From: Phreatobacter sp.
Lineage (GTDB): Bacteria; Pseudomonadota; Alphaproteobacteria; Rhizobiales; Phreatobacteraceae
Assembly: GCF_022843985.1 (NCBI RefSeq)
Contig: NZ_JALHMP010000011.1
Location: 57,532 to 121,531 of the forward strand
Length of the DNA: 64,000 bases
Direction: 5' to 3'
Part shown: piece after piece, positions 17,714-35,788 of the stretch
Numbering within the stretch: the first letter of the stretch is position 1
Layout of the letters: each line of letters begins with the position of its first letter
Position numbers and translations under genes: made by a program
The notes under the pieces: model-generated
Told to the model about the DNA's origin: nothing
Databases searched by the model: none
The model's input: the letters and a program-made list of their open reading frames with translations, nothing else

Positions 17714-18967
17714 ATGTCCGATAGTACGGTGCATCCCGAAGGCGGTTCGCAACCGGTCGCCGCGACCGCCCAGCTCACCGGGATTTTGCGCCGCGTGGCA
17801 ACTGTCGGAGACATTCTGGAGCGGTCGGTCGGCGATGCGACCCATCCACTGAAGATCCAGATCCAGCGTTTCGACAGCCCGGTCCAGGCGGTGATCGACG
17901 GCCGGCAGACCACGCTCTTCGGCACCAACAGCTATCTCGGCCTCAATTTCGATCCGCGCTGCATCGCGGCGGCGGAAACGGCCCTGCGCACCTGGGGCAC
18001 CGGCTCCACCGCCTCGCGTGTCGCCAGCGGCAACCAGGCCGGCCATGCCGAACTCGAGCGCACCATCGCCGCCTATTACGGGCGGCCGGATGCCATCGTC
18101 TTCTCCACCGGCTTCATGGCCAATCTCGGCGCGATCGGCGGCCTCGCCGCCGAGGGCGACCTCATCCTCTACGATGCCTTCTGCCATGCCAGCATCATCG
18201 ATGCCTGCCGGGCGAGCGGCGCGACCTTCAAGTCCTTCCGCCACAACGATCCCGCCGACCTCGACCGCATGCTGACGGAGGCCACCGTGCCGCCGTCGCG
18301 CACCCTGGTCGTGCTCGAGGGCCTCTATTCGGTCTGGGGCGACCTCGGCGCAGTGAAGGATCTCGCCACCGTCGCCAAGCAGCACGGCGCGCTGGTTCTG
18401 GTCGATGAGGCCCATGGTCTCGGCCTCTACGGCGCCACTGGCCGCGGCGTCACCGAGGCCCAGGGCGCCGAGCATCTGGTCGATGCCGTCGTCGGCACCT
18501 TCTCGAAGTCGGTCGGCGTCATCGGCGGCTATTGCGTCACCAGCCATCCGGCCCTGAAGGCGCTGCGCTTCCTCGCCCGCGCCTATCTCTACACCGCCTC
18601 GCTGCCGCCCGCCGTCGTCGCCTCGGCCCGCACGGCGATCGGGATCATCGCCAGCGAGCCCGAGCGGCGCGCCGACCTCTGGCGCAAGGCCGAGCGCTTC
18701 TGCGCCGGCGTCGAGGCGCTCGGCTATTCCCTCTGCGCCGCGCCAGGTCCGGTCGGCGCCATCAAGATGCGCGGCCTCGTCCAGGGTCTCGGCTTCTGGC
18801 GGGAACTGCTCGAGCGCGGCATCTATGTGAACATCCTCGTGCCCCCGGCGACGCCGAGCGGCGAGGTGCTGCTGCGCTATTCCGTCTCGGCCGCCCATGC
18901 CGATGCCGATATCGACCTCTTCCTGGCGGTCCTGGCCGACCTCTCGAAAGTGGCACAGACCGCCTGA
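17714..18967 (+). CDS. spt: Serine palmitoyltransferase-like alpha-oxoamine synthase
   Basis: The 417-residue protein is a PLP-dependent alpha-oxoamine synthase. The cofactor lysine is in GTFSKSVG (Lys265). The PLP-stacking His is in FCHAS (about 158) and the Asp in LVDEAHG (231). The family blocks TNSYLGLNFD and ASGNQAGHAELE are present. The fold is shared by BioF, KBL, HemA and SPT. I favour SPT, condensing serine with an acyl thioester to 3-oxo-sphinganine, because the neighbouring genes encode an acyl carrier protein, a CerR-like reductase, an acyltransferase and inositol-lipid enzymes. It is probably the first committed step of sphingolipid synthesis. Confidence 0.78.
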   Translation: MSDSTVHPEGGSQPVAATAQLTGILRRVATVGDILERSVGDATHPLKIQIQRFDSPVQAVIDGRQTTLFGTNSYLGLNFDPRCIAAAETALRTWGTGSTASRVASGNQAGHAELERTIAAYYGRPDAIVFSTGFMANLGAIGGLAAEGDLILYDAFCHASIIDACRASGATFKSFRHNDPADLDRMLTEATVPPSRTLVVLEGLYSVWGDLGAVKDLATVAKQHGALVLVDEAHGLGLYGATGRGVTEAQGAEHLVDAVVGTFSKSVGVIGGYCVTSHPALKALRFLARAYLYTASLPPAVVASARTAIGIIASEPERRADLWRKAERFCAGVEALGYSLCAAPGPVGAIKMRGLVQGLGFWRELLERGIYVNILVPPATPSGEVLLRYSVSAAHADADIDLFLAVLADLSKVAQTA

Positions 18968-19003
18968 CTCCTCCGGCCGGGCTGCCTGCCGGGCCCGTCG
19001 CCT

Positions 19004-19417
19004 TCAGAACAGGACGACCGCCTCGGCGAGCGCCACCGCCTTGCCGGCCTCGTCCTTGATGAAGATGCGCAGCGTCGCCCGTGCCCGGCCGTCGGCATGG
19101 TCGGCCCGCACGACGCGCCCCGATACGGTCACAGCGGCGCCCACCGGCACCGGCAGGGCGAAGCGCGTCGACAGCTTGGCGCAGGTGGCGTCCGGCAGCC
19201 AGCCGCCGAGCGCCGTATCGGCGAGGCCCATCAGCAGCATGCCCTGGACGATCGGATCGGCGAGGCCGATGGACCGTGCCGCGGCGGCATCCACATGGAT
19301 CGGGTTATCGTCCCCGGAGGCCGCCGCATAGCGGCGCACCATGGCCATGTCGACCGATGGAAACGGCCGGTCGGGCAGGATCGTGCCGAGCGGCAGGGGG
19401 TGGTCGGGTGGCGTCAC
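19004..19417 (-). CDS. MaoC-like hotdog dehydratase
   Basis: The 137-residue hotdog protein carries the hydratase-2 signature YAAASGDDNPIHVD (about 30-43), which contains the catalytic Asp/His pair. It would dehydrate 3-hydroxyacyl or hydrate enoyl thioesters. The start is GTG 19417, overlapping the TGA of the preceding hotdog gene (GTGA). It is the last gene of an ACP - ketoacyl synthase - hotdog - MaoC operon, so its substrates are probably bound to the private ACP. Confidence 0.82.
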   Translation of the reverse strand: MTPPDHPLPLGTILPDRPFPSVDMAMVRRYAAASGDDNPIHVDAAAARSIGLADPIVQGMLLMGLADTALGGWLPDATCAKLSTRFALPVPVGAAVTVSGRVVRADHADGRARATLRIFIKDEAGKAVALAEAVVLF

Positions 19418-19785
19418 GGCACCAGCCTCAGAACGGCGTGCAGGCGCGCTATCGGCGTGTCGGAGTGGCTGATCGCGACGTCGAGTGCGAGGTGGATCGC
19501 ATCCGTCCGCCTGACCTCGGCCACCAGGGACAGCGGCGTGTCGAGGGGCAGGGCGGCAAGCATCTCCACCGTCTGCAATTCATGCACCGGCAGCGAGTCC
19601 GGCCGGTCGGCGGCCAGCGCCCTGACGAGGTTCACCACCTCGGGCCGTGTCAGCCAGCGGATCGGATAGGTCGTCGGCAGGCGTGTGCCGCCGGTGGCCC
19701 CGACACTGGCTGCGAACGCCGCCACATCGGCGCCGGTGGCGATCACCGTGCAGCTGGCGCGGCGCATGTCGCCGGCCTGGCTCAC
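19414..19785 (-). CDS. Hotdog-fold protein, probable partner of the MaoC dehydratase
   Basis: This 123-residue protein resembles the non-catalytic half of double-hotdog dehydratases: it has the TYPIRWLTRPEVV and ELQTVEMLAALPLD segments but lacks the D..NPIH motif. The start codon is GTG 19785, overlapping the ketoacyl synthase stop by four bases (GTGA); ATG 19767 is an alternative. Encoded between the synthase and the MaoC gene, it probably forms a heteromeric dehydratase with MaoC. The function is inferred from context. Confidence 0.65.
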   Translation of the reverse strand: MSQAGDMRRASCTVIATGADVAAFAASVGATGGTRLPTTYPIRWLTRPEVVNLVRALAADRPDSLPVHELQTVEMLAALPLDTPLSLVAEVRRTDAIHLALDVAISHSDTPIARLHAVLRLVP

Positions 19786-20996
19786 GCAGCCCGACCGATG
19801 GCCAGGGACGCGTTGATGCCGCCGAAAGCGAAGGAATTGGTCAGCGCGACGCCGAAGTCATGGTCCCGCCCGACATTGGCCACGCAGTCGATGGGACAGG
19901 CCGGATCCGCCTCCAGGAAGTTGATCGTCGGCGGAACGAAGCCCTCTTCCAGCGCACGGATCGTGACGACCGCTTCGATCGCGCCAGCCGCCCCCAGCGT
20001 GTGGCCGTGGATCGGCTTGGTCGAACTGACGGGCACGGCGGCGAGCCGGTCGCCGAAGATCCGGCCGAGGGCTTCGCTCTCGGTGGAATCGTTGAGGATG
20101 GTGGCGGTGCCATGGGCGTTGACATAACCCACGGCATCAGCCGAGAGACCGGCATCGGCGAGGGCCAGCGCCATGGCCTCCGCGGCACCTCCGACATCCG
20201 GCTTCAGCATGTCCTTGGCGTCGCTGGTCGTCCCGTAGCCGAGGATGCGCGCGCGGGCGCGGGCGCCGCGCGCCTGCGCGACCTCCTCCGCCTCGATGAC
20301 GAGAGCGGCCGAGCCCTCGCCCAGCAGCAATCCGTTGCGCCCGCGGGAGAAGGGACGGCAGAGCTGCGGCGACAGCACGCGCAGCATCTCCCAGGCCTTC
20401 ATGCCGCCCGGCGTGACGATGGCCTCGGCACCGACGACGATGGCCCGGTCGGTCATCCCGGCGCGCACCATCTGGAAGGCGATGCCAAGGGCCTGCGCGG
20501 AGGAGGCGCAGGCGCTCGACACCACGAACGTCGTGCCGGTGCAGCCATAGATCAGCCCGACATTGGAGGCCGAGGCGCTGATCATCGCCCGCGGCACGGT
20601 CAGGGGGTCCGGCCGCTTCTGGGTCAGCGTCATGTTGCGCGTGGCTTCCTCGATCGTGCCGAGGCTGGCAATGCCGGTGCCGACGATCACCGAGGTCCGC
20701 GGTCCGAGCGGCAGGGCGTCGGAGAGGCCGGCGTCCTTCACGGCCTCCTCGGCGGCGATCAGCGCCATCAGCGTGACACGGTCGAAGAAGGAGGTCTTCA
20801 GATGCGGGAAGAAACGTTCGAGGGCGAAGTCCTGGACCTGGGCGGCGATGCGCAGGTTGTTGCCCATCTCGTAGTCCAGCACGATCTGCTTGACGCCGGA
20901 CACGCCGCCGGCAGCCGCACGCCACAGGGCGTCGACGCCCGGGCCGGCCGTGGTGAGCGCACCGAGGCCGGTGACGACAACGTTGCGGGGCGTCAC
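19782..20996 (-). CDS. Beta-ketoacyl-ACP synthase, FabF-like
   Basis: The 404-residue condensing enzyme has the nucleophile in SSACASSA (Cys163) and the active-site histidines in NAHGTAT (His295) and HGHTLGAAG (His332). It elongates an acyl chain with malonyl-ACP. It starts with GTG 20996, two bases after the stop of the ACP gene, and overlaps the hotdog gene. Because it is encoded with its own ACP and dehydratases it is not the housekeeping FabF. It probably prepares or modifies the acyl chain used in sphingolipid assembly. Confidence 0.88.
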   Translation of the reverse strand: MTPRNVVVTGLGALTTAGPGVDALWRAAAGGVSGVKQIVLDYEMGNNLRIAAQVQDFALERFFPHLKTSFFDRVTLMALIAAEEAVKDAGLSDALPLGPRTSVIVGTGIASLGTIEEATRNMTLTQKRPDPLTVPRAMISASASNVGLIYGCTGTTFVVSSACASSAQALGIAFQMVRAGMTDRAIVVGAEAIVTPGGMKAWEMLRVLSPQLCRPFSRGRNGLLLGEGSAALVIEAEEVAQARGARARARILGYGTTSDAKDMLKPDVGGAAEAMALALADAGLSADAVGYVNAHGTATILNDSTESEALGRIFGDRLAAVPVSSTKPIHGHTLGAAGAIEAVVTIRALEEGFVPPTINFLEADPACPIDCVANVGRDHDFGVALTNSFAFGGINASLAIGRAA

Positions 20997-20998
20997 GA

Positions 20999-21277
20999 TC
21001 AGGCCTTCTGAGCTTTCTGGATATGCTCCTTGAGGACGGCGATCAGGCCGCCGACGTCCTTGACCTGGGCGAGGCTCTCGTCCATCGGCACATAGACCTG
21101 GAACTTCTCCTCGATGGCGGCGAGGATCATCATGTAATCCACGCTGGCGATGTTCAGCGATTCGAGCGTCGTTTCCGGCCCGACGCCGTTCAGATCGACC
21201 ATGCCTTCCTTTGCGATAACCTCGACGAGGTCGCGCGTCAGCTGGTCGTCACCGAAAGCGGATGCGGTATCGGTCAT
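20999..21277 (-). CDS. Acyl carrier protein, specialised
   Basis: The 92-residue acidic helical protein resembles ACP, and the phosphopantetheine serine is Ser45 in LNIASVDYMM. The canonical Asp before this serine (DSL) is replaced by Ala, which is unusual and may tune recognition by a dedicated transferase. The start ATG 21277 follows AGAAGG. The Rhizobiales sphingolipid pathway needs its own ACP to feed serine palmitoyltransferase, and this gene is well placed for that role. It leads the operon with the ketoacyl synthase and hotdog genes. Confidence 0.8.
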   Translation of the reverse strand: MTDTASAFGDDQLTRDLVEVIAKEGMVDLNGVGPETTLESLNIASVDYMMILAAIEEKFQVYVPMDESLAQVKDVGGLIAVLKEHIQKAQKA

Positions 21278-21507: not shown

Positions 21508-22116
21508 ATGACGTTTTCCCGCCGAGGGCTGCTTGCCGCAGCCGCCCTGCTCGCGCCGACGGCATCGGCACAGGCCCAGGACCGTCTGCCGCCCGTCAGC
21601 ATCCGCCGGTCCGAAGTGTCAGTGTCACGCACCCTCACCATCGCACGTCCGGACCTTCCCGTTCCGACCGATCGCGGCATGCTGTTCTATGTCCAGCACG
21701 CCATCAACCGGAATGTCCTTGTCTACGCCGCCCGTCAGCGCCCCGATGGCGGCCTCGATCCGCAGCGGCCGGTGGAGGTGTTCTGGCGCCGCTTCGGCGA
21801 CGAAAACGGCAACCGCCGTGAACTGTCCTTCTTCGAGCGCGTCTTCGCCTTCGGCATCAGCACCCAGTCCATCGACCAGGCGCGCCACTCGGCCCGCATC
21901 GCTGGCTACCGCGAGCGCGATGCGGTGATCGATGTCGGCTCCGACGGCACGCCGCGCGCGCTCATGACCGTCGGCGCGCGCACCATGCGGATCGTCTATG
22001 CCTATGCCGAGGCCGAGGACCGCCGGTTCATCCCGAAGATCCACCATATCGACATCCACGGCATCGACATTGCCAGCGGCGAGGCTTTGCGGGAGCGTGT
22101 GCGCCTCGACATGTAG
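21508..22116 (+). CDS. Exported DUF4833-like protein
   Basis: The 202-residue protein has an RR-containing signal peptide (FSRRGLLAAAALLAPTASAQAQ). The body pattern includes FYVQHAINRNVLVYAAR, PVEVFWRRFGDENGN and LSFFERVFAFGI, which I recall from the DUF4833 family. That family is known mainly from Bacteroidetes and has no firm function. It is divergent from the ACP operon and lies inside the sphingolipid/inositol-lipid locus, so a role at the periplasmic side of lipid handling is possible. I start at ATG 21508; an ATG at 21487 would lengthen the N-terminus by seven residues. Confidence 0.6.
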   Translation: MTFSRRGLLAAAALLAPTASAQAQDRLPPVSIRRSEVSVSRTLTIARPDLPVPTDRGMLFYVQHAINRNVLVYAARQRPDGGLDPQRPVEVFWRRFGDENGNRRELSFFERVFAFGISTQSIDQARHSARIAGYRERDAVIDVGSDGTPRALMTVGARTMRIVYAYAEAEDRRFIPKIHHIDIHGIDIASGEALRERVRLDM

Positions 22117-22122
22117 GCGGGG

Positions 22123-22893
22123 TCAGCGCGCCGGGGAGCCCCAGCCGAAATCGTGCCAAAGCCCACGTGGAAACGGGTTTGGCAGGCGGTGGCGCTCGAT
22201 GATCTGGCGCATCAGCGGCGGCTTTGGCCGTTTCGGCTTCCAGGCGCCGTCGAAATGGTGGCAGAAATGGATGTGGCGTGAGAGCAGCGGCTTGCCCGAA
22301 TAGAGCCCGGGCGGCACCCAGTAGATCTGTTCCAGCACCGCCACATCCCGCGGCTTCAATGTGTAGAACAGCCGGGTGAGCGCCTTCGGGCCGGTGGCGT
22401 CCTCGACATCGTCGGTGGAGACGATCGGCCGGCGGGCGACATTCTCCACCATGCGGTCGATGAAGGCCTTGAAGAAGGGATGGCGCGGGGGCGCGCCGAA
22501 CATGCAGTTGGCAAGCTGGAAGGGCTGGTCATAGCCGAGCTCGCGCTGGCGCTGCGGCATCAGCTGGGCCTCGATGGCGAAGACGGCGGTGTCGGTGGCA
22601 CGGAAGATGTCGATCGGCCGCAGGCATTCCATGTCGAGATCGGCGTAGAAGCCGCCGTCGACATAGACGGCGACGACCCTCCAGAAATCGGCCTCGGCGA
22701 CACCGAGTTTCAGCCTGTCGAAGGTCGGCAGAAGATCGGGACAGTGCTGCGCGACATAGGCGCGCCGCGCCCGTGAATCGTAGAAGCGGATGGCAAGTCC
22801 CGGGTTCTTGTCGCGGATCGAGCGCTGGAAGGGCACGAGATGGCCCGGGATATCGGCACTCTCCCATGTCTGGTGCACGATGGCCGGTATCAT
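22123..22893 (-). CDS. Glycosyltransferase family 32 (DXD sugar-binding type)
   Basis: The 256-residue enzyme begins IPAIVHQTWES and carries AVYVDGGFYADLDME, with the DXD motif at about 85-87. This is the Gly_transf_sug/GT32 signature. GT32 contains yeast Och1 and, importantly, the Sur1/Csh1 catalytic subunits that mannosylate inositol phosphorylceramide. Its place between a DUF4833-like gene and LptG/LptF-like genes suggests it glycosylates the lipid head group made by this locus. The donor sugar cannot be read from sequence. Confidence 0.82.
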   Translation of the reverse strand: MIPAIVHQTWESADIPGHLVPFQRSIRDKNPGLAIRFYDSRARRAYVAQHCPDLLPTFDRLKLGVAEADFWRVVAVYVDGGFYADLDMECLRPIDIFRATDTAVFAIEAQLMPQRQRELGYDQPFQLANCMFGAPPRHPFFKAFIDRMVENVARRPIVSTDDVEDATGPKALTRLFYTLKPRDVAVLEQIYWVPPGLYSGKPLLSRHIHFCHHFDGAWKPKRPKPPLMRQIIERHRLPNPFPRGLWHDFGWGSPAR

Positions 22894-22931: not shown

Positions 22932-24116
22932 TCAGTCCCGGCCGGCCCGTTCCATGCGCATCATCAGACCCAGAGCGGTGACGATCATGGCCAGCGGCAT
23001 CAACCACGCGGCGAGCAACGGTGGTAGTTGCCCATATTCTCCCAGCCAGACAACGATATTGTTGGTGACATAGAGGAAATAGCCGGCGAGCCCGATGAGG
23101 ATCATCGGTCTGAACAGGGTCCGCTGGGCCAGCAGCGTCATCGCCAGGGCGGAGGCCATCAGCATCATGCCGAGCGGCAGCACCGCCTGGGCGATCCTGA
23201 CGTGCCACCAGGCCTGGTAGGAGGGCTCGTTCAGCCCCTTGATGCTGGCGAGCTGGGACAGTGTCGGTTGCGGCAGGTAGCGGGCGTCGATCCCGAGATT
23301 GGCGAGCCAGAGCGGCTCCAGCGGCAGGGCGATCCGCTCTTCGGCGAAGCGCCGCGCCGTGCCGGTCCCTTGCGCCGGGCTCGGGGCGCCCTCGGCCGGC
23401 GCCGTCCAGCGGCTGCCGTTTCGGAAGATCCAGATCCCCGGAACATCGGCCGGGACGGCACTGGCGGCCGCCATGCGACCCGCGAGGCGACCGGCCTCCG
23501 ACAGTTCGAACAGTTGCACATCGACAAGGGTCCGGTTGCGGTAGTCGATCCGCGCCTGGACCATGTGGTTCGGCAGGACGATCCAGCGCCGCTCTTCCGG
23601 CTTCAGCTGTCGGTCGAACCACTCGCCATGGCCGCCGAGCTGGGTCTCGATCTGGATGCCGACGGCGGTTGGCCGCAGGACCGCGAGCGCGGTCACCTGG
23701 AGCGCCCCCAGCAGCACCCCGAGAACGGCGATGGGCATCAGCGACTGCAGCGGCGAGCGTCCCCCGTTCCAGATGACGATCCGCTCGCGCGACTGTGTCA
23801 GCGTGATCTCCGACCAGAACAGGCCCATGAAACAGGCGAGCGGCAGCAGATTGCCGATCAGGTCGCAGATGCGCAGCAGCAAGTACCAGCCCATGTGCAG
23901 AATGAGCCCCGGAACGCCGCCGCTGGCCTGGGCCACGACCTGGTTGGCCCGCGCGGCGAGATCCAGCGTCAGCGCGACGATGAGCAGGGCGGCGACGACG
24001 GTGCCGATATGGCTCGCATGGGCGAGGGTGAGCGTGCGCGTATAGGTGCCGAAGGCGACGAGCCCGAAGTGGCGCCCCTTGGCATCGGCCGGAACGGGGG
24101 TCTGGAGGGCGGTCAC
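22932..24116 (-). CDS. LptG-like permease of an LPS-type ABC exporter (second copy)
   Basis: The 394-residue protein starts at GTG 24116, overlapping the stop of the LptF-like gene (GTGA). It has about three N-terminal and three C-terminal membrane spans around a large periplasmic domain (about 135-290), the LptF/LptG layout. LptFG extract a lipid from the inner membrane and pass it to a periplasmic bridge. Being encoded in a sphingolipid locus and not next to LPS genes, it is probably a paralogue that exports the lipid made here. Confidence 0.75.
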   Translation of the reverse strand: MTALQTPVPADAKGRHFGLVAFGTYTRTLTLAHASHIGTVVAALLIVALTLDLAARANQVVAQASGGVPGLILHMGWYLLLRICDLIGNLLPLACFMGLFWSEITLTQSRERIVIWNGGRSPLQSLMPIAVLGVLLGALQVTALAVLRPTAVGIQIETQLGGHGEWFDRQLKPEERRWIVLPNHMVQARIDYRNRTLVDVQLFELSEAGRLAGRMAAASAVPADVPGIWIFRNGSRWTAPAEGAPSPAQGTGTARRFAEERIALPLEPLWLANLGIDARYLPQPTLSQLASIKGLNEPSYQAWWHVRIAQAVLPLGMMLMASALAMTLLAQRTLFRPMILIGLAGYFLYVTNNIVVWLGEYGQLPPLLAAWLMPLAMIVTALGLMMRMERAGRD

Positions 24117-25439: not shown

Positions 25440-26576
25440 TTGCAGATTGCTGAAGCACGGTCACGGCGCGATTTTAGACGCTTCATCCGCCTCCCGCGAC
25501 AACTCTATTCGGGAATGCCCGGATTTCAGCCGCCGCTCGATCTGGAGCGGTTCCTGCTGCTCGATCCGCGCGTGGCCCCCTTCTTCACCCATGGGGAGGC
25601 GGCCTTCTTCATCGCCCGCGATGCAGCCGGCCGGCCCCTCGGTCGCATCTCCGCCCAGTGCGACCGGCTGGCGCCGGCCGATCGCGCCGCGACCGGGCAT
25701 TTCGGCTGTCTCGACGCGGTGGACGATCCCGCCGTCGTGGCGGGTCTCATCGCCGCCGCCCGCCGCTGGCATGCCGAGCGTGGCCGCCACCGCATCGAGG
25801 GCCCCTTCACCTATTCCATTAACGAGGAGGTCGGCATCCAGATCTCCGGCCAGGATCGCGGCGACATGGTGCTGATGCCCTGGCATCCGCCCTATCTGGG
25901 CGCCCATGTCGAGGCCGCGGGCCTCGTCCCGGTCAAGGATCTTCTCGCCTATAGCGTGCCGCTCGCCCGGGGCGCGCAATGGCGCGGCGTGCGCTTCGCG
26001 CAATTGCCCGAAGGAAGCCCGATCAAAGTCCGCCAGCTCGACCTCGGCAACCTTGCCGGCGAGGCCGCCATCATGACCGAGCTCTACAACGCCTCCTGGC
26101 GCGACAATTGGGGCTTCATCCCCCTGGCGGCGGCCGAACTCACCACGCTACTCCGGGTGATACGGCCGATCCTCAAGCCGGCCCATGCGGTCTTCCTCGA
26201 ACATGACGGGCGGGCGGTCGCCTTCGCCTTCATCATGCCCAATGGCTACGAGCTGTTCCGCGGCTTCCGTGGCCGGCTCTTGCCCTTCAACTGGGCGCGG
26301 CTCCTGTGGCGCATCTTCACCCATCGCTTCGCCGCCAAGCGGGTGACGCTGCTCGGCGTCAGGACCGACCTGCGCGACACGATTCTCGGCGCGCGCCTGC
26401 CCATTGTCGCCATCGCCAGGCTCATCGCCGCCAATCCGGAGCCGGCCGAGATCGAGATGAGCTGGATTCTTGACGACAATCTGCGTATGCGCCGTATCAT
26501 CGAAGGCGCGGGCGGAACCATATCCAAGCGCTACCGGGTCTATGCCGATCCGGAACCGACGGGCGAGGGGCCATGA
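25440..26576 (+). CDS. GNAT-like N-acyltransferase, candidate bacterial ceramide synthase
   Basis: The roughly 378-residue protein resembles large GNAT-superfamily proteins that open with R.F.R.P..LY....F.PPLDLE (seen here from residue 12 on). From memory, the ceramide synthase described in Caulobacter belongs to this type and N-acylates the sphingoid base. The start is uncertain; TTG 25440 follows GGGGA, and no ATG lies close to the conserved N-terminus. Its stop overlaps the PgpA-like start (ATGA), so the two are translated together. Context with spt and a CerR-like gene supports the ceramide synthase assignment, which remains an inference. Confidence 0.62.
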   Translation: MQIAEARSRRDFRRFIRLPRQLYSGMPGFQPPLDLERFLLLDPRVAPFFTHGEAAFFIARDAAGRPLGRISAQCDRLAPADRAATGHFGCLDAVDDPAVVAGLIAAARRWHAERGRHRIEGPFTYSINEEVGIQISGQDRGDMVLMPWHPPYLGAHVEAAGLVPVKDLLAYSVPLARGAQWRGVRFAQLPEGSPIKVRQLDLGNLAGEAAIMTELYNASWRDNWGFIPLAAAELTTLLRVIRPILKPAHAVFLEHDGRAVAFAFIMPNGYELFRGFRGRLLPFNWARLLWRIFTHRFAAKRVTLLGVRTDLRDTILGARLPIVAIARLIAANPEPAEIEMSWILDDNLRMRRIIEGAGGTISKRYRVYADPEPTGEGP

Positions 26577-27082
26577 GCACGGCAGGCAGTACGGGCGGTC
26601 TCGCCCCGGTGGACGCCGCCTTTCTGGTGAGTCACCCGGCGCCGCTGGTGGCGCTGGTCGGCGGCGCCGGCCTCTTCCCCTATGGACCGGGAACGCTCGG
26701 CGCCCTGGTCGGCATCCCGCTCGGCCTGGCCTTGCAGGCGGCACCGGCCGCCGTCGCGCTTGCCCTGGTCGCGGCGACCTTTGCCTTCGGGGTCTGGGCC
26801 TGCGGTGTCACCGCGCTGCGCTCCGGCGTCCACGACCATCCCGCCATCGTCTTCGACGAGACCTGGGCCATGGCCGCCGTCATCGCCTTTTCGCCGCCGG
26901 GTCTCAGGGCCGTGCTGGTCGGTTTTCTCGCCTTCCGCCTCTTCGACATCCTCAAACCCTGGCCGATCGGTCACATCGACCAGAACGTCGCGGCCGGCTT
27001 TGGCATCATGCTGGATGATGCGGTCGCGGCGGTCTTCGCCCTCGCGCTCGTCTTCGGGCTGTCGCGCCTCGGCTGGCTCTAG
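26573..27082 (+). CDS. PgpA-like phosphatase, possibly phosphatidylinositol-phosphate phosphatase
   Basis: The 169-residue membrane protein shows the PgpA motifs GLFPYGPGTLGAL, IVFDETW, FRLFDILKPWPI and GIMLDDAVAAVFA. PgpA normally dephosphorylates phosphatidylglycerophosphate. In the inositol-lipid cluster of Bacteroides a PgpA-like enzyme acts on phosphatidylinositol phosphate. The presence here of inositol-3-phosphate synthase and a CDP-alcohol transferase makes the same role likely. It is translationally coupled to the acyltransferase gene. A housekeeping role in phosphatidylglycerol synthesis cannot be excluded from sequence. Confidence 0.82.
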   Translation: MSTAGSTGGLAPVDAAFLVSHPAPLVALVGGAGLFPYGPGTLGALVGIPLGLALQAAPAAVALALVAATFAFGVWACGVTALRSGVHDHPAIVFDETWAMAAVIAFSPPGLRAVLVGFLAFRLFDILKPWPIGHIDQNVAAGFGIMLDDAVAAVFALALVFGLSRLGWL

Positions 27083-27118: not shown

Positions 27119-27241
27119 TCACACGCCGGCGATCACCCGCATGGTGAGCAGGCCGCAGGCCAGCGCGATGGCGATCCCCAGTCCATCGAAAAGTTGCATC
27201 CGCGTGATCCCGTCGTGACGGGAGTCATCATGGAACAACAT
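27119..27241 (-). CDS. Possible small membrane protein (40 residues)
   Basis: An ORF with GC-ending codons in its 3' half encodes a short hydrophilic N-terminus (MLFHDDSRHDG) and one hydrophobic segment (LGIAIALACGLLTMRVIAGV). It sits downstream of the LptB-like gene, in the gap before the convergent PgpA-like gene. There is no good ribosome site, so it may be spurious. If it is real, a one-span accessory subunit would fit. Confidence 0.25.
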   Translation of the reverse strand: MLFHDDSRHDGITRMQLFDGLGIAIALACGLLTMRVIAGV

Positions 27242-27335: not shown

Positions 27336-28052
27336 TCAGAGCACGAAATCCGTGCCCAGATAGACCGCCTTGACCCGGGGATCGGCAACGATGTGCTCGA
27401 CCGAGCCGGAGGCCAGGATCAGGCCGCCGTCAAGAATATAGGCACGATCGACCAGGCTGAGCGTCTCGCGGACATTGTGGTCGGTCACCAGCACGCCGAT
27501 GCCCCGCGCCGAGAGCTTGCGCACGAGGATGCGCACCTCCGACACCGCGATGGGGTCGACGCCGGCGAAGGGCTCGTCCAGCAGGATGAAGGAGGGCTCG
27601 CTCGCCAGGGTCCGGGCGATCTCCAGCCGCCGTCGCTCGCCGCCCGAGAGGGACCCGGCCTTGGAGCGGCGCACATGGGTGATGCCGAACTCCTCCAGCA
27701 GGCCATCCAGCCGCCGGCCGCGCGCCTTCCGGTCGCCGATGAGCGATTCCAGCACGATGAGGATATTCTCCTCCACCGAGGAGCCGCGGAAGATCGACGC
27801 CTCCTGCGGCAGGTAGCCGAGCCCCATGCGCGCGCGCATGAACAGCGGCAGCCGCGTGATGTTCTTGTCGTCCAGCATGACGACGCCACTGTCGGGCACC
27901 TGCATGCCCGCGATCATCGAGAAGGTGGTGGTCTTGCCCGCCCCGTTGGGCCCAAGCAGGCCGACGACCTCGCCGCGTCGCAGCGCCAGGTCCACCCCGC
28001 GCACCGTGGGGCGGCCGTCATGGGACTTGACCAGCCGTCGCGCGATCAGCAT
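27336..28052 (-). CDS. LptB-like ABC transporter ATPase (second copy)
   Basis: The 238-residue ATPase has Walker A GPNGAGKTT (34-42), LPQEASIFRG (81-90, typical of LptB), the signature LSGGE (135-139) and Walker B LLDEPFAGVDP. LptB powers LptFG. In Alphaproteobacteria the housekeeping lptB is normally beside lptA and rpoN, which are absent here. This copy lies behind inositol-phosphate synthase and near LptF/LptG-like genes, so it is probably the motor of a dedicated lipid exporter. Confidence 0.85.
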   Translation of the reverse strand: MLIARRLVKSHDGRPTVRGVDLALRRGEVVGLLGPNGAGKTTTFSMIAGMQVPDSGVVMLDDKNITRLPLFMRARMGLGYLPQEASIFRGSSVEENILIVLESLIGDRKARGRRLDGLLEEFGITHVRRSKAGSLSGGERRRLEIARTLASEPSFILLDEPFAGVDPIAVSEVRILVRKLSARGIGVLVTDHNVRETLSLVDRAYILDGGLILASGSVEHIVADPRVKAVYLGTDFVL

Positions 28053-28104: not shown

Positions 28105-29184
<1,080 letters not shown>

Positions 29185-29269: not shown

Positions 29270-30238
29270 ATGTTGATGGTCACAGGCGCCGCAGGGCTGC
29301 TGGGCAACAGCCTCGTGCGGGCCACCGCCGCGCGGGGGCTGGCTGTCACCGCATGGCTGCGCAACAGGGCCGGAGAACGGACGCTGGCGGGGCTGGACGT
29401 GCCGGTCGTCTTCGCCGATCTGGCAGGCGAGGGGCTCGAAAAGCGGGTCGAAAGTGCTGATGTGGTGGTCCACTGTGCTGCGCGGGTGGGAATCGGCCGC
29501 ACCGATGCAGCGGGCTTCCACCGCGACAATGTCCTCGCGACGCAACGTCTGGCGACGGCCTGCCGTGCCGTCGGCGCACGCCTCGTTCATGTCTCGACGG
29601 TGGACACGCTGGTCTGGGGAACGCGCGAAAAACCGGGCGACGAGACCCCTGCCGCGCCGCATCCACGTGATACCACTTATGCGGCATCCAAGCGCCTCGC
29701 CGAGGCCGCAGTGCTCGCCGAGATGGACCGGGGGCTCGACGCGACCATCGTCCATCCCGGCTTTCTGCTCGGCCCCTGGGACTGGAAACCCTCATCCGGC
29801 CGCATGATCCTCGCCGCCGCGCGCGGACCCTTCACCGTGGCCCCGCCCGGAGGCAACGATTTCTGCCATGCCGGGGCCGTCGCCGAAGCGCTGCTCGCCC
29901 TCGCGCAAAGGCGCCCGCCCGCCGACCGCTATGTCCTCTCCGGCGAGGCCCTGACCTATGCGCAGGCCTTTCGGCTGATGCGGCAGGCGGCCGGCCGTCC
30001 GGCGCGCGTCGTCACCGCGCCGGCGGCTGCCGTCCGGGCGGCGGGAGCTGCCGGCGACCTCCTGGGGCGGCTGTCGGGCCGCGAACCGGCCCTCAACAGC
30101 GCCGCTGCCGCCATCGCCTGCCAGCCGCACCATTTCTCCTCGGCCCGCGCCATCGCGGAGATCGGCTACCGTCCGCGCCCGGCCATCGAGGCCATGCGCG
30201 AAGCGTGGACATGGTTCGTCGAACGCGGCTATGCGTGA
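29270..30238 (+). CDS. NAD-dependent epimerase/dehydratase, CerR-like
   Basis: The 322-residue extended SDR has TGAAGLLGNSLVRA (5-18) and the active-site Tyr-Lys in TTYAASKRLAEA. Such proteins are often annotated as HpnA-like or NAD-dependent epimerases. CerR, which reduces the 3-oxo group of the sphingoid base in Caulobacter, belongs to this superfamily. With spt, ACP and a GNAT-like acyltransferase nearby, 3-oxo-sphinganine (or 3-oxo-ceramide) reductase is the best guess. A sugar-nucleotide epimerase for the glycosyltransferases here is the alternative. Confidence 0.65.
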   Translation: MLMVTGAAGLLGNSLVRATAARGLAVTAWLRNRAGERTLAGLDVPVVFADLAGEGLEKRVESADVVVHCAARVGIGRTDAAGFHRDNVLATQRLATACRAVGARLVHVSTVDTLVWGTREKPGDETPAAPHPRDTTYAASKRLAEAAVLAEMDRGLDATIVHPGFLLGPWDWKPSSGRMILAAARGPFTVAPPGGNDFCHAGAVAEALLALAQRRPPADRYVLSGEALTYAQAFRLMRQAAGRPARVVTAPAAAVRAAGAAGDLLGRLSGREPALNSAAAAIACQPHHFSSARAIAEIGYRPRPAIEAMREAWTWFVERGYA

Positions 30239-30274: not shown

Positions 30275-31384
30275 GTGAAGATCGCACTCGTGAGCGACTG
30301 GTTCGCCCCGCGCCTCGGCGGCATCGAGCTGCAGATGCGCGATCTCGCCGTGGCGCTGCGCGACCGCGGCCACGCGGTCCGGGTCATCTGCGGGGTTCCC
30401 GGCGACCCTGACGTCGACGGCATTCCGGTCGAGCGCCTGCCAGGGCCACGCTTGGCCGGTTTCGGTATCGCCTTCACCCCCGCCGTCTTCGCGTCTCTGC
30501 GGGCCGCCATCGATGCCGGTGGCGACGAGGTCGTCCACATCCATTGCGGCAATGTCGCGCCGCTCGCCCATCATGCCGTCCAGCACTGCATCCGCCGCGG
30601 CATCCCGGCGGTCGCGACCTTCCATTCGGTGCTGAAATATTACGACCTGCCGCTGATGGTGCTCGACGCCCTGCATGGCTATGCGCGCTCCGCCGTCCGC
30701 TTCACCGCGGTCTCGACGGTTGCCGGCGCGGCGCTGCGCCCGCTGCTGCGCGACACGCCCGTCAGCGCCATCCCCAACGGGATCGACCTCGCCTGGTGGC
30801 GCCGGCCGGATGATCGCGCGCCGCGCCCGCCGGGGCCGGTCGAATTCATCTCGGTGACGCGGCTGCAGAAGCGCAAGCGGGCGCGCTGGCTGGTCAGGGC
30901 CTTTGCCGCGGCGGTGGCGCATTTGCCACGCGAGGCCGCGCGCCTGACCATCGTCGGCGACGGCGACGAGAAGGCCGCCATCGCCGCCATCATCCGGCGG
31001 GCCGGCATGGAGGACCGCATACGGCTCGCCGGGCGCGAGACCCGCGAGGCGATCCGCGACCGGCTCCATCGCTCCGACGTCTTTCTGCTGGCCTCGCGGC
31101 TGGAGGCCTTCGGCATCGCCGCCCTGGAGGCCCGCGCCGCCGGCCTGCCCGTCATCACCATGGCGCAGTCCGGCGCCCGCGACTTTCTCCATGACGGCGA
31201 GGACGCGGTCCTCGCCGCCGATGACGACGCGCTGGCCGATGCGATCCGCCGGCTCGCGGGGGCCCCGGCGTTGCGCCTGCGGATGATCGCCGCAGCGGCG
31301 GTGCCGCCGGCCGGCGTCGACTGGCGCGAGGTCGCGCCGCGCTACGAGGCGGAATATGCGGCGGCACAGGCCGCGGTCACCTGA
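30275..31384 (+). CDS. Glycosyltransferase family 4
   Basis: The 369-residue GT-B enzyme has the N-terminal acceptor-side loop (SDWFAPRLGGIE near 8-19) and the C-terminal donor-site block EAFGIAALEARAAG with the E-x7-E pattern. The start is GTG 30275. The family includes retaining enzymes that act on phosphatidylinositol, such as PIG-A and mycobacterial PimA/PimB, and on inositol phosphate (MshA). In this locus an inositol lipid acceptor is plausible. The gene ends directly at the convergent UPF0104 gene. Confidence 0.85.
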   Translation: MKIALVSDWFAPRLGGIELQMRDLAVALRDRGHAVRVICGVPGDPDVDGIPVERLPGPRLAGFGIAFTPAVFASLRAAIDAGGDEVVHIHCGNVAPLAHHAVQHCIRRGIPAVATFHSVLKYYDLPLMVLDALHGYARSAVRFTAVSTVAGAALRPLLRDTPVSAIPNGIDLAWWRRPDDRAPRPPGPVEFISVTRLQKRKRARWLVRAFAAAVAHLPREAARLTIVGDGDEKAAIAAIIRRAGMEDRIRLAGRETREAIRDRLHRSDVFLLASRLEAFGIAALEARAAGLPVITMAQSGARDFLHDGEDAVLAADDDALADAIRRLAGAPALRLRMIAAAAVPPAGVDWREVAPRYEAEYAAAQAAVT

Positions 31385-33186: not shown

Positions 33187-34023
33187 CTACCACCAGTCCT
33201 TGAAGGCCGCGATGGCGGCGAGGTCATTGGCGCCGGACCGGTTCGGGCCGAAGGTCAGGGCGGCGAGATCGGAGGCTTCCGTCTCGATCGGCAGGCCGCG
33301 GCCGGGAATGACGACCCGCGGCACACCGCGCTTCGCCAGATGGCCGGCGAACCAGACGTCGTCGACGAAGCGCAGGCCGGGCGCCTGGCCGGCAAAGTCG
33401 TGCACCGCCGCGTCGAAGGCGCCGGGCGGCACCAGATAGCCCCAGGTCCCCAGCAGGATGTCGACCGGCTCGGGAGCGGTGAGGGCGGTGGCGAAGATAT
33501 GCGGAAACCGCTTGGGATGGGCGCCCGGCACGATGCGCCAGCCGCGCCATCCGATCGCCGTCCCCGGCAGCCGGCGATGCCAGGCGAGCAGCTGTTCGAT
33601 GAAATCGGCGGGATAGATGACGTCGTCATCGACGACGATGATGGCCGCGGCGGGTTCGGCGAGGAGCGCCGGCAGCAGCTTGGTGGCCGGCCCCTCGTCC
33701 ACCGTGTCGAGCACGTCGATCCCCGGAAAGGGCGGGTCGAGCCGCGGATAGGGCAGGCCCGAGCGCCGCGACACGTCCGGCCGGGCGAGAATGATGCGGT
33801 CGGCCGCCACGGTCTGGTCCATGAGGCTGCGGAACACCGGCGCCAGCCGGTCCATGCGCTCGGGAACGGTCGTCAGCGTCACCACGATCCGCTCCGGCCG
33901 CGCCGGCGCGGCCGGCCGGGCCGGCGCCGTCCCATGCATCAATTTGCGTGCGCGGGCATGATCCTGATAGAGCCTAGCCGGCGTCATGCGCCGGAAGCGC
34001 ATCAGCGCGTTGCGGATCTTCAT
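33187..34023 (-). CDS. Glycosyltransferase, GT-A type
   Basis: The 278-residue protein has VVTLTTVPERMDRL near 47-60 and IIVVDDDVIYP with acidic metal-binding residues near 135-140, typical of a GT-A fold. The RFVDDVWFAGHLAKRGV segment resembles the acceptor/catalytic region of some eukaryote-like GT-A enzymes. The exact family is not recognised. It is divergent from the CDP-alcohol transferase gene and probably forms an operon with the deacetylase and UPF0104 genes. Confidence 0.68.
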   Translation of the reverse strand: MKIRNALMRFRRMTPARLYQDHARARKLMHGTAPARPAAPARPERIVVTLTTVPERMDRLAPVFRSLMDQTVAADRIILARPDVSRRSGLPYPRLDPPFPGIDVLDTVDEGPATKLLPALLAEPAAAIIVVDDDVIYPADFIEQLLAWHRRLPGTAIGWRGWRIVPGAHPKRFPHIFATALTAPEPVDILLGTWGYLVPPGAFDAAVHDFAGQAPGLRFVDDVWFAGHLAKRGVPRVVIPGRGLPIETEASDLAALTFGPNRSGANDLAAIAAFKDWW

Positions 34024-34134
34024 GGCCGGTGGGCCGGGGCGGTCCGGAAAGTGGGGCGCATCTCGACCTCGGCTCTCTCACGGGATGAGGACGGGCTCAA
34101 TAGCACCGCACGCGGCAAACGGGGAGCCGGGTTG

Positions 34135-34833
34135 ATGTCGGAAAGCTGGGTCTCGCGGCTTCTCGCGAGCCTTGAACGGGGGGCCTCGCTGCAGGACATC
34201 GCCCGCAGTGCATCCTTCGCCGGAGCCCTGGCGAAAGCGGCGGCGCTGCTGGCGCGGACCGGCGTCACGCCTAACAGTCTGACGCTCCTGTCGCTGGTGC
34301 CGGCCCTCCTGTCGGGCCTTTTCGCCGCCTACGGGGCCTTCGGCTGGGCGACCCTGTTCCTGCTCCTGTCCGGGGTCGTCGACATGCTCGACGGGCCGCT
34401 CGCCCGTTCCACCGGGACGGTCAGCCGTTTCGGCGCCCTGCTCGATTCGACCATCGACCGCATCACCGATGCCGCGCCGCTGCTCGGCCTCATCGTCTAC
34501 TACGCGCCATCCGGCTGGATGGTCGTCATTCCCGGCTTCACACTCCTGACCGCCTATACGGTCTCCTATGTCCGTGCCCGCTGCGAGGGACTGGAGGTGC
34601 AGCTGCCGCCGCTGTGGATGCGCCGGGGCGACCGCATGGTGCTGATCGCGCTGTCCCTGCTCCTCGGCCTGTGGTCGCCCGCCCTCACGCTGGCCTGTAT
34701 CGGCCTGGTCGGTGTCCTCAGCCTCCTCGCCTCGGCCGACGCGCTGCGCGTCGCACGCCAGGTCATTGACTCCCGGCTGCCGGACGCGCGCGCCGCGTCG
34801 GACGCACCGGCGAGCCGCGACACCGCGATCTGA
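34135..34833 (+). CDS. CDP-alcohol phosphatidyltransferase, candidate phosphatidylinositol-phosphate synthase
   Basis: The 232-residue membrane enzyme contains the complete CDP-alcohol phosphotransferase signature, with Asp83, Asp86, Gly87, Ala90-Arg91, Gly100, Asp104 and Asp108. It transfers a phosphatidyl group from CDP-diacylglycerol to an alcohol. The nearby inositol-3-phosphate synthase makes inositol 3-phosphate the likely acceptor, as in mycobacterial and Bacteroides PIP synthases. ATG 34135 follows GGGGAG; the longer in-frame reading is antisense to the upstream glycosyltransferase. The PAP2/Aur1-like gene begins 7 bp after its stop. Confidence 0.85.
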   Translation: MSESWVSRLLASLERGASLQDIARSASFAGALAKAAALLARTGVTPNSLTLLSLVPALLSGLFAAYGAFGWATLFLLLSGVVDMLDGPLARSTGTVSRFGALLDSTIDRITDAAPLLGLIVYYAPSGWMVVIPGFTLLTAYTVSYVRARCEGLEVQLPPLWMRRGDRMVLIALSLLLGLWSPALTLACIGLVGVLSLLASADALRVARQVIDSRLPDARAASDAPASRDTAI

Positions 34834-34840
34834 GACTCCC

Positions 34841-35788
34841 ATGATCGACAAAGCCCGGACCCATCTGACCGGCCTGTGGGGCCGCTGGTGGCTCGCCCCG
34901 CTCGCCCCCGCCATCTATGCCCTCGCCATGATCCCGGCAGGTCAGTTCAGGCCGGAACATGCCGTCATCGCAGGCCTGGTTCTCGGCCTCGGCCTGTTCA
35001 ACCGGACGACCCAGCGCCTCACCGCCGCGCTCTATCCCGGCGTGCTGGTGGCCGTCGCCTCCGATGCGATGCGTTTCGTCGTGCCGGTCTTCGTCACGCC
35101 CGAACGGGTCCATGCCTGCGACCTGCGGGCCCTCGAACTGACGCTCTTCGCCGTTGCGCCCGACACGACCCCGGGCGACTGGCTGCAGCGGCATACGGCG
35201 CCGTTCTGGGATGTGTTCTTCGCCATTCCCTACGCCGCCTTCCTCTATGTCGTGCCGGTCTATGCGCTCTATCTCTTCGTCCGCGACCGGGAACGCATGG
35301 CGCTCTATCTCTGGGCCTTCGCCATCGCCCATGTCATCGGCTACACCCTGTGGCTGATCGTGCCGGCGGCCCCGCCCTGGTATGTGCGGCTGAACGGCTG
35401 CGCGGTCGATGTGAAGGCCGCGGCCAATGCGGCGGGCCTGCTGCGCGTCGACGACCTCTTCGGCATGAGCTATTTCCAGCAGTTCTACGCCCGCGCCGCC
35501 AATGCCTTCGGCGCCGTGCCCTCCATGCATGTCGCCTTCCCGCTGATCGCGCTCTTCGCCGCCATGGGCCGCGCCACCTGGCGCACCTGGCCGCTGCATA
35601 TCGGCTACGCGACAGCCATGTTCATCGGCAGCGTCTATCTCGACCACCACTGGATCGTCGACGGGATCGCCGGTGCGGCGGTCGCCCTGGCCGCCGTGTG
35701 GATCGCCGCCCGCCTGCTCGGCCTGCCCTGGCCCTGGCCGCCGCGGGCGCTGCCCCCGGCGGAGGGTGCGCACCCGCCCAAGCCGTGA
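34841..35788 (+). CDS. PAP2/Aur1-like membrane enzyme, candidate inositol phosphorylceramide synthase
   Basis: The 315-residue protein has about six to eight membrane spans. Its phosphatase-type motifs are FGAVPSMHVAFP (about 223-234) and YLDHHWIVDGIAG (about 266-278), which supply two histidines and an Asp. The length and the APPWY segment before the first motif match the PAP2_3/Aur1 branch that moves phosphoinositol from phosphatidylinositol to ceramide. It directly follows the candidate PIP synthase. In Bacteroides an equivalent gene pair makes inositol phosphorylceramide. A lipid phosphatase is the alternative. Confidence 0.72.
   Translation: MIDKARTHLTGLWGRWWLAPLAPAIYALAMIPAGQFRPEHAVIAGLVLGLGLFNRTTQRLTAALYPGVLVAVASDAMRFVVPVFVTPERVHACDLRALELTLFAVAPDTTPGDWLQRHTAPFWDVFFAIPYAAFLYVVPVYALYLFVRDRERMALYLWAFAIAHVIGYTLWLIVPAAPPWYVRLNGCAVDVKAAANAAGLLRVDDLFGMSYFQQFYARAANAFGAVPSMHVAFPLIALFAAMGRATWRTWPLHIGYATAMFIGSVYLDHHWIVDGIAGAAVALAAVWIAARLLGLPWPWPPRALPPAEGAHPPKP

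What the first reader, a model, noticed from the sequence alone, without database searches (positions are those of the whole stretch)
17714..35788. Candidate complete pathway for glycosylated inositol phosphorylceramide in an alphaproteobacterium
Twenty adjacent genes cover ceramide synthesis (SPT, ACP, ketoacyl synthase, two hotdog dehydratases, CerR-like reductase, GNAT-like acyltransferase) and inositol lipid synthesis (inositol-3-phosphate synthase, CDP-alcohol transferase with an intact signature, PgpA-like phosphatase, PAP2/Aur1-like enzyme). Seen: domains, motifs and several coupled overlaps. Known: Bacteroides makes inositol phosphorylceramide with a MIPS, PIP synthase, PgpA-like phosphatase and PAP2/Aur1-like set, while Caulobacter makes ceramide with SPT, CerR and a GNAT-type CerS. 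Inference: both modules are joined here, so the lipid would be phosphoinositol-ceramide, further glycosylated. I am not aware of this combination being described in Alphaproteobacteria.
Basis: partly seen in the sequence, partly recalled or inferred. Interest (0 to 1): 0.93.

Follow-up and report, generated by a model that had tools for sequence, protein, structure and literature searches.

The report
Phreatobacter inositol-sphingolipid gene cluster
A gene cluster kept in all twelve examined genomes of the bacterial genus Phreatobacter encodes relatives of the enzymes that make ceramide and of the yeast-type enzyme AUR1 that puts inositol phosphate on ceramide, so these bacteria are predicted to make, and likely to sugar-coat and export, a fungus- and plant-like membrane lipid.

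Summary
Window 17714-35788 carries 20 genes with, in the main, the described domains; a KdsR-like reductase upstream (16678-17496) and a 26-residue membrane peptide (27122-27199) extend it. The genus is Phreatobacter. The PAP2 protein matches only AUR1 inositol phosphorylceramide (IPC) synthases among solved structures; the SPT is far closer to SPTs than to BioF/KBL/ALAS; the CDP-alcohol protein is closest to PIP synthases; the GNAT-like protein models as a tandem GNAT. All 21 genes keep order and strand in 11 of 11 other Phreatobacter genomes. Four alphaproteobacterial MAGs outside the genus carry rearranged versions. A second LptF/LptG/LptB set lies in the cluster. Predicted product: IPC, probably glycosylated and moved to the outer membrane. 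Corrections: the likelier 3-ketosphinganine reductase is the SDR beside SPT, not the epimerase called CerR-like; DUF4833, the Lpt2 set and a CE4 deacetylase belong to the set. No lipid was measured, and SPT, MIPS, PIP synthase and PAP2 fall below NCBIfam equivalog cut-offs. Verdict: real, probably right, a new variant of known pathways. A PI-ceramide-like lipid was already tentatively reported from one alphaproteobacterium, without genes.

The parts
16678..17496 (+).
   Evidence: best NCBIfam NF049977 3-ketodihydrosphingosine reductase 245 bits, under its cut-off 400, runner-up 230.6; directly upstream of SPT in 11 of 11 other Phreatobacter; a related SDR overlaps the SPT gene in L038
17714..18967 (+). 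serine palmitoyltransferase
   Evidence: best PDB match an SPT, 348.7 bits, vs at most 196.4 for BioF/KBL/ALAS; NF047599 SPT 469.8 bits, cut-off 500, bioF 323.9; PLP lysine motif GTFSKS
19004..19417 (-). MaoC/HadB-like hydroxyacyl-ACP dehydratase
   Evidence: PF01575 E 3e-17; G-D-x-N-P-x-H motif
19414..19785 (-). small partner of the dehydratase (probable non-catalytic hotdog; no family match)
   Evidence: no Pfam or NCBIfam match; overlaps its neighbours by 4 bases; in L038 the MaoC domain is the C-terminal part of a 268-aa protein
19782..20996 (-). beta-ketoacyl-ACP synthase (FabF-like)
   Evidence: PF00109/PF02801; Cys-His-His motifs
20999..21277 (-). acyl carrier protein
   Evidence: PF00550 22.7 bits, cut-off 20.8
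21508..22116 (+). DUF4833 protein with an N-terminal signal-like segment
   Evidence: PF16117 E 6.8e-25; fused to CDP-alcohol phosphotransferases in Bacteroidota
22123..22893 (-). glycosyltransferase with DXD motif
   Evidence: PF04488 E 1.2e-10
22932..24116 (-). second LptG-like permease (LptG2); start approximate
   Evidence: PF03739; TIGR04408 119.6 bits, cut-off 240; higher-scoring pair elsewhere on C26
24113..25333 (-). second LptF-like permease (LptF2)
   Evidence: PF03739; TIGR04407 67 bits, cut-off 230
25440..26576 (+). bacterial ceramide synthase candidate, tandem GNAT fold
   Evidence: AF2 model pLDDT 84.9, best Foldseek 7q3a tandem GNAT E 1.9e-13; relatives lie near SPT in 12 of 20 class loci
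26573..27082 (+). PgpA-like phosphatase, predicted PIP phosphatase
   Evidence: PF04608 118.5 bits; overlaps the ceramide synthase gene; the only PgpA of the genome; 12 of 12 Phreatobacter but 3 of 49 other genomes of the order
27122..27199 (-). conserved 26-residue membrane peptide (stop codon 27119-27121)
   Evidence: best-match scan finds it beside the ABC gene in 12 of 12 Phreatobacter loci, 13 to 26 of 26 residues identical, codon-position differences 50/12/110
27336..28052 (-). second LptB-like ATPase (LptB2)
   Evidence: TIGR04406 328.7 bits, cut-off 240; another LptB on C7 scores 379.1
28105..29184 (-). inositol-3-phosphate synthase
   Evidence: best PDB 1gr0 498 bits; TIGR03450 554.6 bits, cut-off 638; sole PF01658 match in 12 of 12 Phreatobacter genomes
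29270..30238 (+). NAD-dependent epimerase/dehydratase; role open (CerR-like reductase or sugar epimerase)
   Evidence: PF01370; best NCBIfam HpnA 169.5 bits, cut-off 367.65
30275..31384 (+). GT4 glycosyltransferase
   Evidence: PF00534; best PDB BshA-type 69.7 bits, PimA 60 bits
31385..32383 (-). LPG_synthase_TM / flippase-like membrane protein
   Evidence: PF03706 94.1 bits
32380..33120 (-). CE4 polysaccharide deacetylase-like protein
   Evidence: PF01522 62.6 bits; best PDB peptidoglycan deacetylase 3qbu 47.8 bits
33187..34023 (-). conserved probable GT2-type glycosyltransferase
   Evidence: only a sub-threshold PF00535 match, E 0.063; homologue in 11 of 11 Phreatobacter and in 4 of 4 other alphaproteobacterial loci
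34135..34833 (+). CDP-alcohol phosphatidyltransferase, predicted PIP synthase
   Evidence: [quoted passage not shown] NF040950 121.6 (cut-off 180), NF045883 98, pgsA 38.9
34841..35788 (+). AUR1-family PAP2 protein, predicted IPC synthase
   Evidence: the only PDB matches at E <= 0.001 are AUR1 9vj3/9ivc, E 1e-19; the only NCBIfam match is NF052609 PI-dihydroceramide synthase 137.5 bits, cut-off 480; His-His-Asp motifs

Best explanation
The locus encodes relatives of serine palmitoyltransferase, inositol-3-phosphate synthase, PIP synthase and AUR1 beside a second Lpt transport set, and is predicted to make inositol phosphorylceramide that is likely glycosylated and likely carried to the outer membrane. 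Predicted order of steps. (1) SPT would join serine to an acyl chain and the SDR beside it likely reduces 3-ketosphinganine. (2) The tandem-GNAT protein likely N-acylates the base; the dedicated ACP, ketoacyl synthase and dehydratase pair would supply or extend an acyl chain. (3) The inositol-3-phosphate synthase would make inositol phosphate, the CDP-alcohol enzyme would join it to CDP-diacylglycerol as PIP, and the PgpA-like enzyme would remove the spare phosphate to give phosphatidylinositol. (4) The AUR1-like enzyme would move phosphoinositol onto ceramide. (5) The GT4, DXD and GT2-like glycosyltransferases and the CE4 deacetylase would add and de-acetylate sugars. (6) LptB2-LptF2-LptG2 would extract the lipid and send it outward, with DUF4833 acting outside the inner membrane. 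Shown: genes, similarity, conservation, synteny. Inferred: every reaction, the order, and the product.
For: SPT 348.7 bits to its best SPT structure vs at most 196.4 to BioF/KBL/ALAS; its two strong paralogues in the genome score as ALA synthases. AUR1 is the only PDB family matched at E <= 0.001 and PI-dihydroceramide synthase the only NCBIfam model. PIP synthase is the best match of the CDP-alcohol protein. MIPS and PgpA are sole copies located in the cluster (PgpA in 3 of 49 other genomes of the order). All 21 genes in the same order and strand in 11 of 11 other Phreatobacter. Four other alphaproteobacterial loci (L038, L039, L041, L042) combine AUR1-like, CDP-alcohol, MIPS, ceramide-synthase-like, KAS, GT2-like and flippase-like genes in other orders; three of them hold an SPT-like gene, and L039 and its near relative L041 add a desaturase, shown for L039 to match a sphingolipid desaturase domain. 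The genome has a further, higher-scoring LptF/LptG pair and LptB elsewhere. Relatives of the ceramide synthase candidate lie within about 10 kb of SPT in 12 of 20 class loci.
Against: No lipid or enzyme was measured. SPT, MIPS, PIP synthase, PAP2, the two Lpt permeases and the SDR all fall below the NCBIfam equivalog cut-offs. The SPT-like proteins of L038, L039 and L041 score a little higher with the bioF model than with SPT models. PgpA is the only copy in the genome, so it could be the ordinary PGP phosphatase. No LptC or LptA domain was found among the genes. GT4 resembles BshA as much as PimA. 69 of the 80 AUR1-like loci show no SPT match in the stretch held, so the AUR1-like/CDP-alcohol pair is often not beside ceramide genes. 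The published outline of the Phreatobacteraceae (PMC7179689, passages seen) gives no lipid data of its own. Fold search gave nothing for DUF4833.
Confidence: 0.72

Rival explanations
1. The inositol module makes only phosphatidylinositol on diacylglycerol, or an inositol-phosphate cap on a polysaccharide, and the PAP2 protein does another phosphotransfer; ceramide is decorated separately by the glycosyltransferases.
For: PIP synthase and PgpA alone would suffice for PI; the Myxococcota loci held show no SPT match in the stretch, though most have CDP-alcohol and AUR1-like genes together. Heaver et al. found small amounts of inositol in the B. thetaiotaomicron capsule that depended on MIPS (PMC9246714, passages).
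Against: The only PDB and NCBIfam matches of the PAP2 protein are IPC/PI-dihydroceramide synthases, and SPT and ceramide-synthase-like genes are in the same conserved block.
Confidence: 0.13
2. The epimerase at 29270-30238, not the SDR at 16678-17496, is the ceramide reductase (CerR), acting after N-acylation as proposed for Caulobacter.
For: Epimerase-family proteins near SPT in 8 of 20 class loci give weak matches to it; it is kept in 11 of 11 Phreatobacter; CerR was localised to the periplasm of Caulobacter (PMC11087976, passages including the abstract).
Against: Its best NCBIfam model is HpnA (169.5 of 367.65); no match to it in L038, L039, L041 or L042 at E <= 1e-3; the SDR has KdsR as best model and sits next to SPT in 11 of 11, and an SDR overlaps SPT in L038.
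Confidence: 0.3
3. The second Lpt set moves another lipid (for example a variant LPS), and the glycosyltransferases belong to a surface polysaccharide that merely sits in the block.
For: The genome still has LpxC, so LPS is likely present; L039 and L041 carry a polysaccharide-export-type gene in their clusters.
Against: LptF2 or LptG2 homologues also lie near ceramide-synthase-like genes in 11 of 20 class loci (LptF2 9, LptG2 4) and in L042, and the Caulobacter LptC2/F2/G2 genes lie in its sphingolipid region (PMC11324152, section 8 part 1 and section 9).
Confidence: 0.15

Closest known systems
Bacteroides thetaiotaomicron BT_1522-1526 inositol lipid operon (Heaver 2022 PMC9246714, section 10 and passages read; Sartorio 2022 PMC8791184, abstract and outline seen)
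   Same: MIPS, PIP synthase, PgpA-like PIP phosphatase and AUR1-like PI-dihydroceramide synthase in one cluster; a protein annotated as lysylphosphatidylglycerol synthase nearby (BT_1521)
   Different: Here the MIPS scores best with the mycothiol-type Ino1 model, the AUR1-like protein falls with Myxococcota, ceramide genes, glycosyltransferases, a deacetylase and a second Lpt set are in the same block, and the host is an alphaproteobacterium
Caulobacter crescentus CC_1152-1168 phosphosphingolipid region (Olea-Ozuna 2024 PMC11324152, abstract, section 8 part 1, section 9 and passages read)
   Same: SPT, dedicated ACP, ceramide synthase, second LptF/LptG genes, in one region of an alphaproteobacterium
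   Different: Caulobacter builds ceramide phosphoglycerate through a ceramide kinase; here no lipid kinase domain appears among the 20 genes and the headgroup enzymes are inositol-phosphate enzymes. The comparison is by gene content, not by sequence
Fungal AUR1 IPC synthase and fungal/plant glycosyl inositol phosphorylceramides (pathway recalled; PDB match)
   Same: Predicted reaction (PI + ceramide to IPC + DAG) and PAP2-type catalytic His-His-Asp; predicted later glycosylation
   Different: Shorter bacterial protein, with a bacterial-type PIP synthase and phosphatase; sugars and linkage unknown
Novosphingobium acidiphilum PI-DHC-like lipid (PMC9246714, section 10)
   Same: Inositol-phosphoceramide-like lipid in an alphaproteobacterium
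   Different: Tentative mass-spectral assignment; the authors found no homologues of either Bacteroidetes cluster there
B. thetaiotaomicron 3-ketosphinganine reductase BT_0972 (PMC9278070, abstract and outline seen)
   Same: A bacterial 3-ketosphinganine reductase; the NCBIfam KdsR model is the best match of the SDR at 16678-17496
   Different: Here it lies next to the SPT gene; score below the equivalog cut-off; BT_0972 itself was not aligned

Membership tests
AUR1 / PI-dihydroceramide synthase | sequence relationship to solved IPC synthases | tested here: met
   9vj3, 9ivc E 1e-19, no other PDB family at E <= 0.001
AUR1 / PI-dihydroceramide synthase | PAP2 catalytic His...His...Asp | tested here: met
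   both motifs in 12 of 12 Phreatobacter copies; in the 4 other alphaproteobacterial loci the second motif 4 of 4, the first 2 of 4 with the pattern used, L039 and L041 reading PSVH, His kept
NF052609 equivalog (BT_1522 type) | score above curated cut-off | tested here: not met
   137.5 of 480 bits; so not filed as an equivalog, only as an AUR1-family protein
serine palmitoyltransferase | closer to SPT than to other alpha-oxoamine synthases | tested here: met
serine palmitoyltransferase, NF047599 equivalog | score above curated cut-off | tested here: not met
   469.8 of 500 bits
PIP synthase | CDP-alcohol signature and closest to inositol-phosphate-accepting members | tested here: met
PIP synthase NF045883 / NF040950 equivalogs | score above curated cut-off | tested here: not met
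   98 of 170; 121.6 of 180
inositol-3-phosphate synthase | Pfam PF01658 above its cut-off | tested here: met
   127.5 bits, cut-off 27
inositol-3-phosphate synthase, TIGR03450 equivalog | score above curated cut-off | tested here: not met
   554.6 of 638
bacterial ceramide synthase (bCerS) | direct similarity to the Caulobacter enzyme CC_1154 | not tested
   the named sequence was not at hand; relatives lie near SPT in 12 of 20 unnamed class loci
LptB | score above the TIGR04406 cut-off | tested here: met
   328.7 bits, cut-off 240
LptF/LptG LPS exporters | score above the TIGR04407/04408 cut-offs | tested here: not met
   67 of 230 and 119.6 of 240; Pfam LptF_LptG cut-off met by both
KdsR NF049977 | score above curated cut-off | tested here: not met
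   245 of 400, though the best model
CerR | close relationship to ceramide reductase | tested here: inconclusive
   best model HpnA below cut-off; weak matches in 8 of 20 class loci; no named CerR sequence compared
inositol phosphorylceramide producer | the lipid itself | not testable with these tools
   needs mass spectrometry

The most novel reading that the evidence does not exclude
Phreatobacter makes a bacterial counterpart of the glycosyl inositol phosphorylceramides of plants and fungi: an amino-sugar-bearing inositol phosphorylceramide, finished by the CE4 deacetylase and shipped to the outer leaflet beside LPS by its own LptB2F2G2 machine with DUF4833 and a 26-residue membrane peptide as parts; the pathway was assembled by gene transfer from an alphaproteobacterial ceramide cluster and a myxobacterial inositol-lipid cluster.
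Probability: 0.3. Interest if true: 0.82.

Novelty: new variant of a known kind. Interest (0 to 1): 0.64.

Why it matters
It would give Alphaproteobacteria a genetic route to inositol sphingolipids and a named species (P. stygius carries the block) in which to test it. Nearly all predicted parts, from acyl supply through headgroup and sugars to export, lie in one locus, so the open question of how bacterial sphingolipids reach the outer membrane becomes testable gene by gene. The fusion of DUF4833 to PIP-synthase-like enzymes in Bacteroidota links a family of unknown function to inositol lipids. It would also bear on how often AUR1-type chemistry moved between bacteria, and whether the eukaryotic pathway has bacterial roots.

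Tried and rejected

Organism names given to PDB entries (Sphingomonas for the SPTs, Mycobacterium for 6h53 and 1gr0) are recalled; the calls name the molecules only.

Full report
WHAT IS THERE. The 64 kb window is G000:C11:57532-121531 of a 4.33 Mb genome. Gene calling and Pfam confirm 20 genes from 17714 to 35788. One more gene upstream (SDR, 16678-17496) and a 26-residue conserved peptide (27122-27199, minus strand) belong to it on conservation grounds.

CONSERVATION. I fetched 20 kb around the PAP2 gene in all 11 other genomes that one search gave as same genus, then the SPT side of the seven where it was missing or cut. A final count over these stretches finds all 21 genes (the 20 and the SDR) in 11 of 11, in the same order and relative strand. 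In P. stygius (G008) 33.8 kb separate PgpA from the ABC gene. Outside the genus, 2 of 49 genomes of the order gave only weak PAP2 matches (E about 6e-4), and in a class sample only the window's own genome matched at E <= 1e-10 (1 of 385).

ENZYME IDENTITIES. SPT: the best solved structures are SPTs (348.7 bits; Sphingomonas, recalled); BioF, KBL and ALAS reach 196.4 at most. The best NCBIfam SPT model gives 469.8 bits against a cut-off of 500, bioF 323.9. The two strong paralogues in the genome score as ALA synthases, 663.5 and 584.7 bits. PAP2: a profile of 12 Phreatobacter proteins finds only AUR1 in the PDB at E <= 0.001 (E 1e-19), and the only NCBIfam match is PI-dihydroceramide synthase (137.5 of 480 bits). 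CDP-alcohol enzyme: best PDB match 6h53, named CDP-diacylglycerol--inositol 3-phosphatidyltransferase; the inositol-type models (121.6, 98, 82.6 bits) exceed pgsA (38.9). MIPS: 498 bits to 1gr0, inositol-3-phosphate synthase, sole PF01658 match in 12 of 12 Phreatobacter genomes. PgpA: sole copy in the genome, in 12 of 12 Phreatobacter but 3 of 49 others of the order, which fits a dedicated role but also leaves it as the possible PGP phosphatase. The GNAT-like protein has no Pfam match; its AlphaFold2 model (pLDDT 84.9) matches tandem GNATs (E 1.9e-13). Among 385 class genomes 51, the window's own included, have a relative. Of the other 50 I fetched 20, chosen for long contigs: 12 of 20 have an SPT match in the 20 kb held and 8 an epimerase-family match as well, 11 an LptF2 or LptG2 match, 4 a CDP-alcohol match; none of the 20 shows a PAP2, MIPS or PgpA match to the window.

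REDUCTASE. The SDR at 16678-17496 has 3-ketodihydrosphingosine reductase as its best NCBIfam model (245 of 400 bits; the next, a generic oxidoreductase, 230.6). It sits directly upstream of SPT in 11 of 11 Phreatobacter, and in L038 another SDR overlaps the SPT gene. The L038 SDR itself scores best with a generic SDR model, so this is a lead and not proof. The epimerase at 29270-30238 is conserved too, so both may matter.

OTHER ALPHAPROTEOBACTERIA. A scan of named genomes with the PAP2 profile kept the best 80 of at least 561 loci. 64 of the 80 have a CDP-alcohol match, 33 a PgpA match, 13 a MIPS match and 11 an SPT match in the stretch held, two of the 80 being Phreatobacter genomes already seen. 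L038 (Hyphomicrobiales MAG), L039 and L041 (Rhizobiales MAGs) and L042 (Rhodobacteraceae MAG) carry most of the set in other orders. L042 has no SPT match, and L038, L039 and L041 no LptF2/LptG2 match, in the stretches held. Next to PAP2, L039 and L041 have 75% identical desaturase genes, of which the L039 one matches Lipid_DES, a sphingolipid desaturase domain. The SPT-like proteins of L038, L039 and L041 score slightly higher with bioF (316-335) than with their best SPT models (272-309), a result against a simple reading of those three. The AUR1-like proteins of Phreatobacter and these four form one clade (98/98) among Myxococcota.

EXPORT AND SUGARS. The cluster's LptF-like and LptG-like genes and LptB (above its cut-off) are second copies. 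This echoes the Caulobacter region with LptC2, LptF2 and LptG2 (PMC11324152, section 8 part 1). The glycosylation step rests on a GT4 with BshA and PimA types as best structures, a DXD glycosyltransferase, a conserved GT2-like protein with only a sub-threshold Pfam match and a CE4 deacetylase. The motif check on the deacetylase was loose and is not evidence of activity.

DUF4833. It lies in 18 of the 80 PAP2 loci by a tblastn with the window's protein. In seven Bacteroidota loci it is the C-terminal part of the CDP-alcohol protein; in a protein search with one such fusion, 119 of the 120 proteins listed (of 1572 found) carry both Pfam domains (the search drew on candidates of similar length, so unfused ones are under-sampled). 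The linker of the fusion I read has a signal-like hydrophobic stretch, and the Phreatobacter protein has a signal-like N-terminus, so a place outside the inner membrane is inferred. No fold match and no paper naming it.

PRIOR WORK AND NOVELTY. The pathway logic is known from Bacteroides (PMC9246714, section 10 and passages; PMC8791184, abstract) and ceramide plus Lpt2 from Caulobacter (PMC11324152, sections; PMC11087976, passages). A tentative PI-ceramide-like lipid is known in Novosphingobium (PMC9246714, section 10). Databases already label at least one copy, that of P. stygius, with a name beginning 'Inositol phosphorylceramide synt'. What I did not find in print is the joined locus in Alphaproteobacteria. 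I rate it a new variant of a known kind.

Noticed in passing
window 27122-27199 (-): 26-27-residue membrane peptide (MQLFDG...) found beside the second LptB gene in 12 of 12 Phreatobacter loci (13 to 26 of 26 residues identical) with codon-position differences 50/12/110; a possible small subunit.
   Followed up: partly
window 21508-22116; L075, L076, L080, L087, L090, L101, L109: DUF4833 (PF16117) is fused to CDP-alcohol phosphatidyltransferase in Bacteroidota, which ties a family of unknown function to inositol lipid synthesis.
   Followed up: partly
L039 10294-11253; L041 11005-11964: Desaturase genes next to the AUR1-like gene in two Rhizobiales MAGs; the L039 protein matches the sphingolipid delta-4 desaturase domain Lipid_DES.
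   Followed up: no
window 35847-38069 (-): 740-aa protein with repeated units and a C-terminal trypsin-like domain, next to the cluster in 10 of 11 Phreatobacter loci searched; no link to lipids seen.
   Followed up: no
L023 4033-7724; L024 4012-7712: An insert of about 3.7 kb between the GT2-like and deacetylase genes in two Phreatobacter genomes, content not examined.
   Followed up: no
G000:C20 and G000:C16 (L002, L003): The genome has two genes scoring above the ALA synthase cut-off.
   Followed up: no
window 61537-63491: Two genes called at the right end of the window have low third-position G+C (0.47 and 0.51) unlike the rest, suggesting foreign DNA.
   Followed up: no
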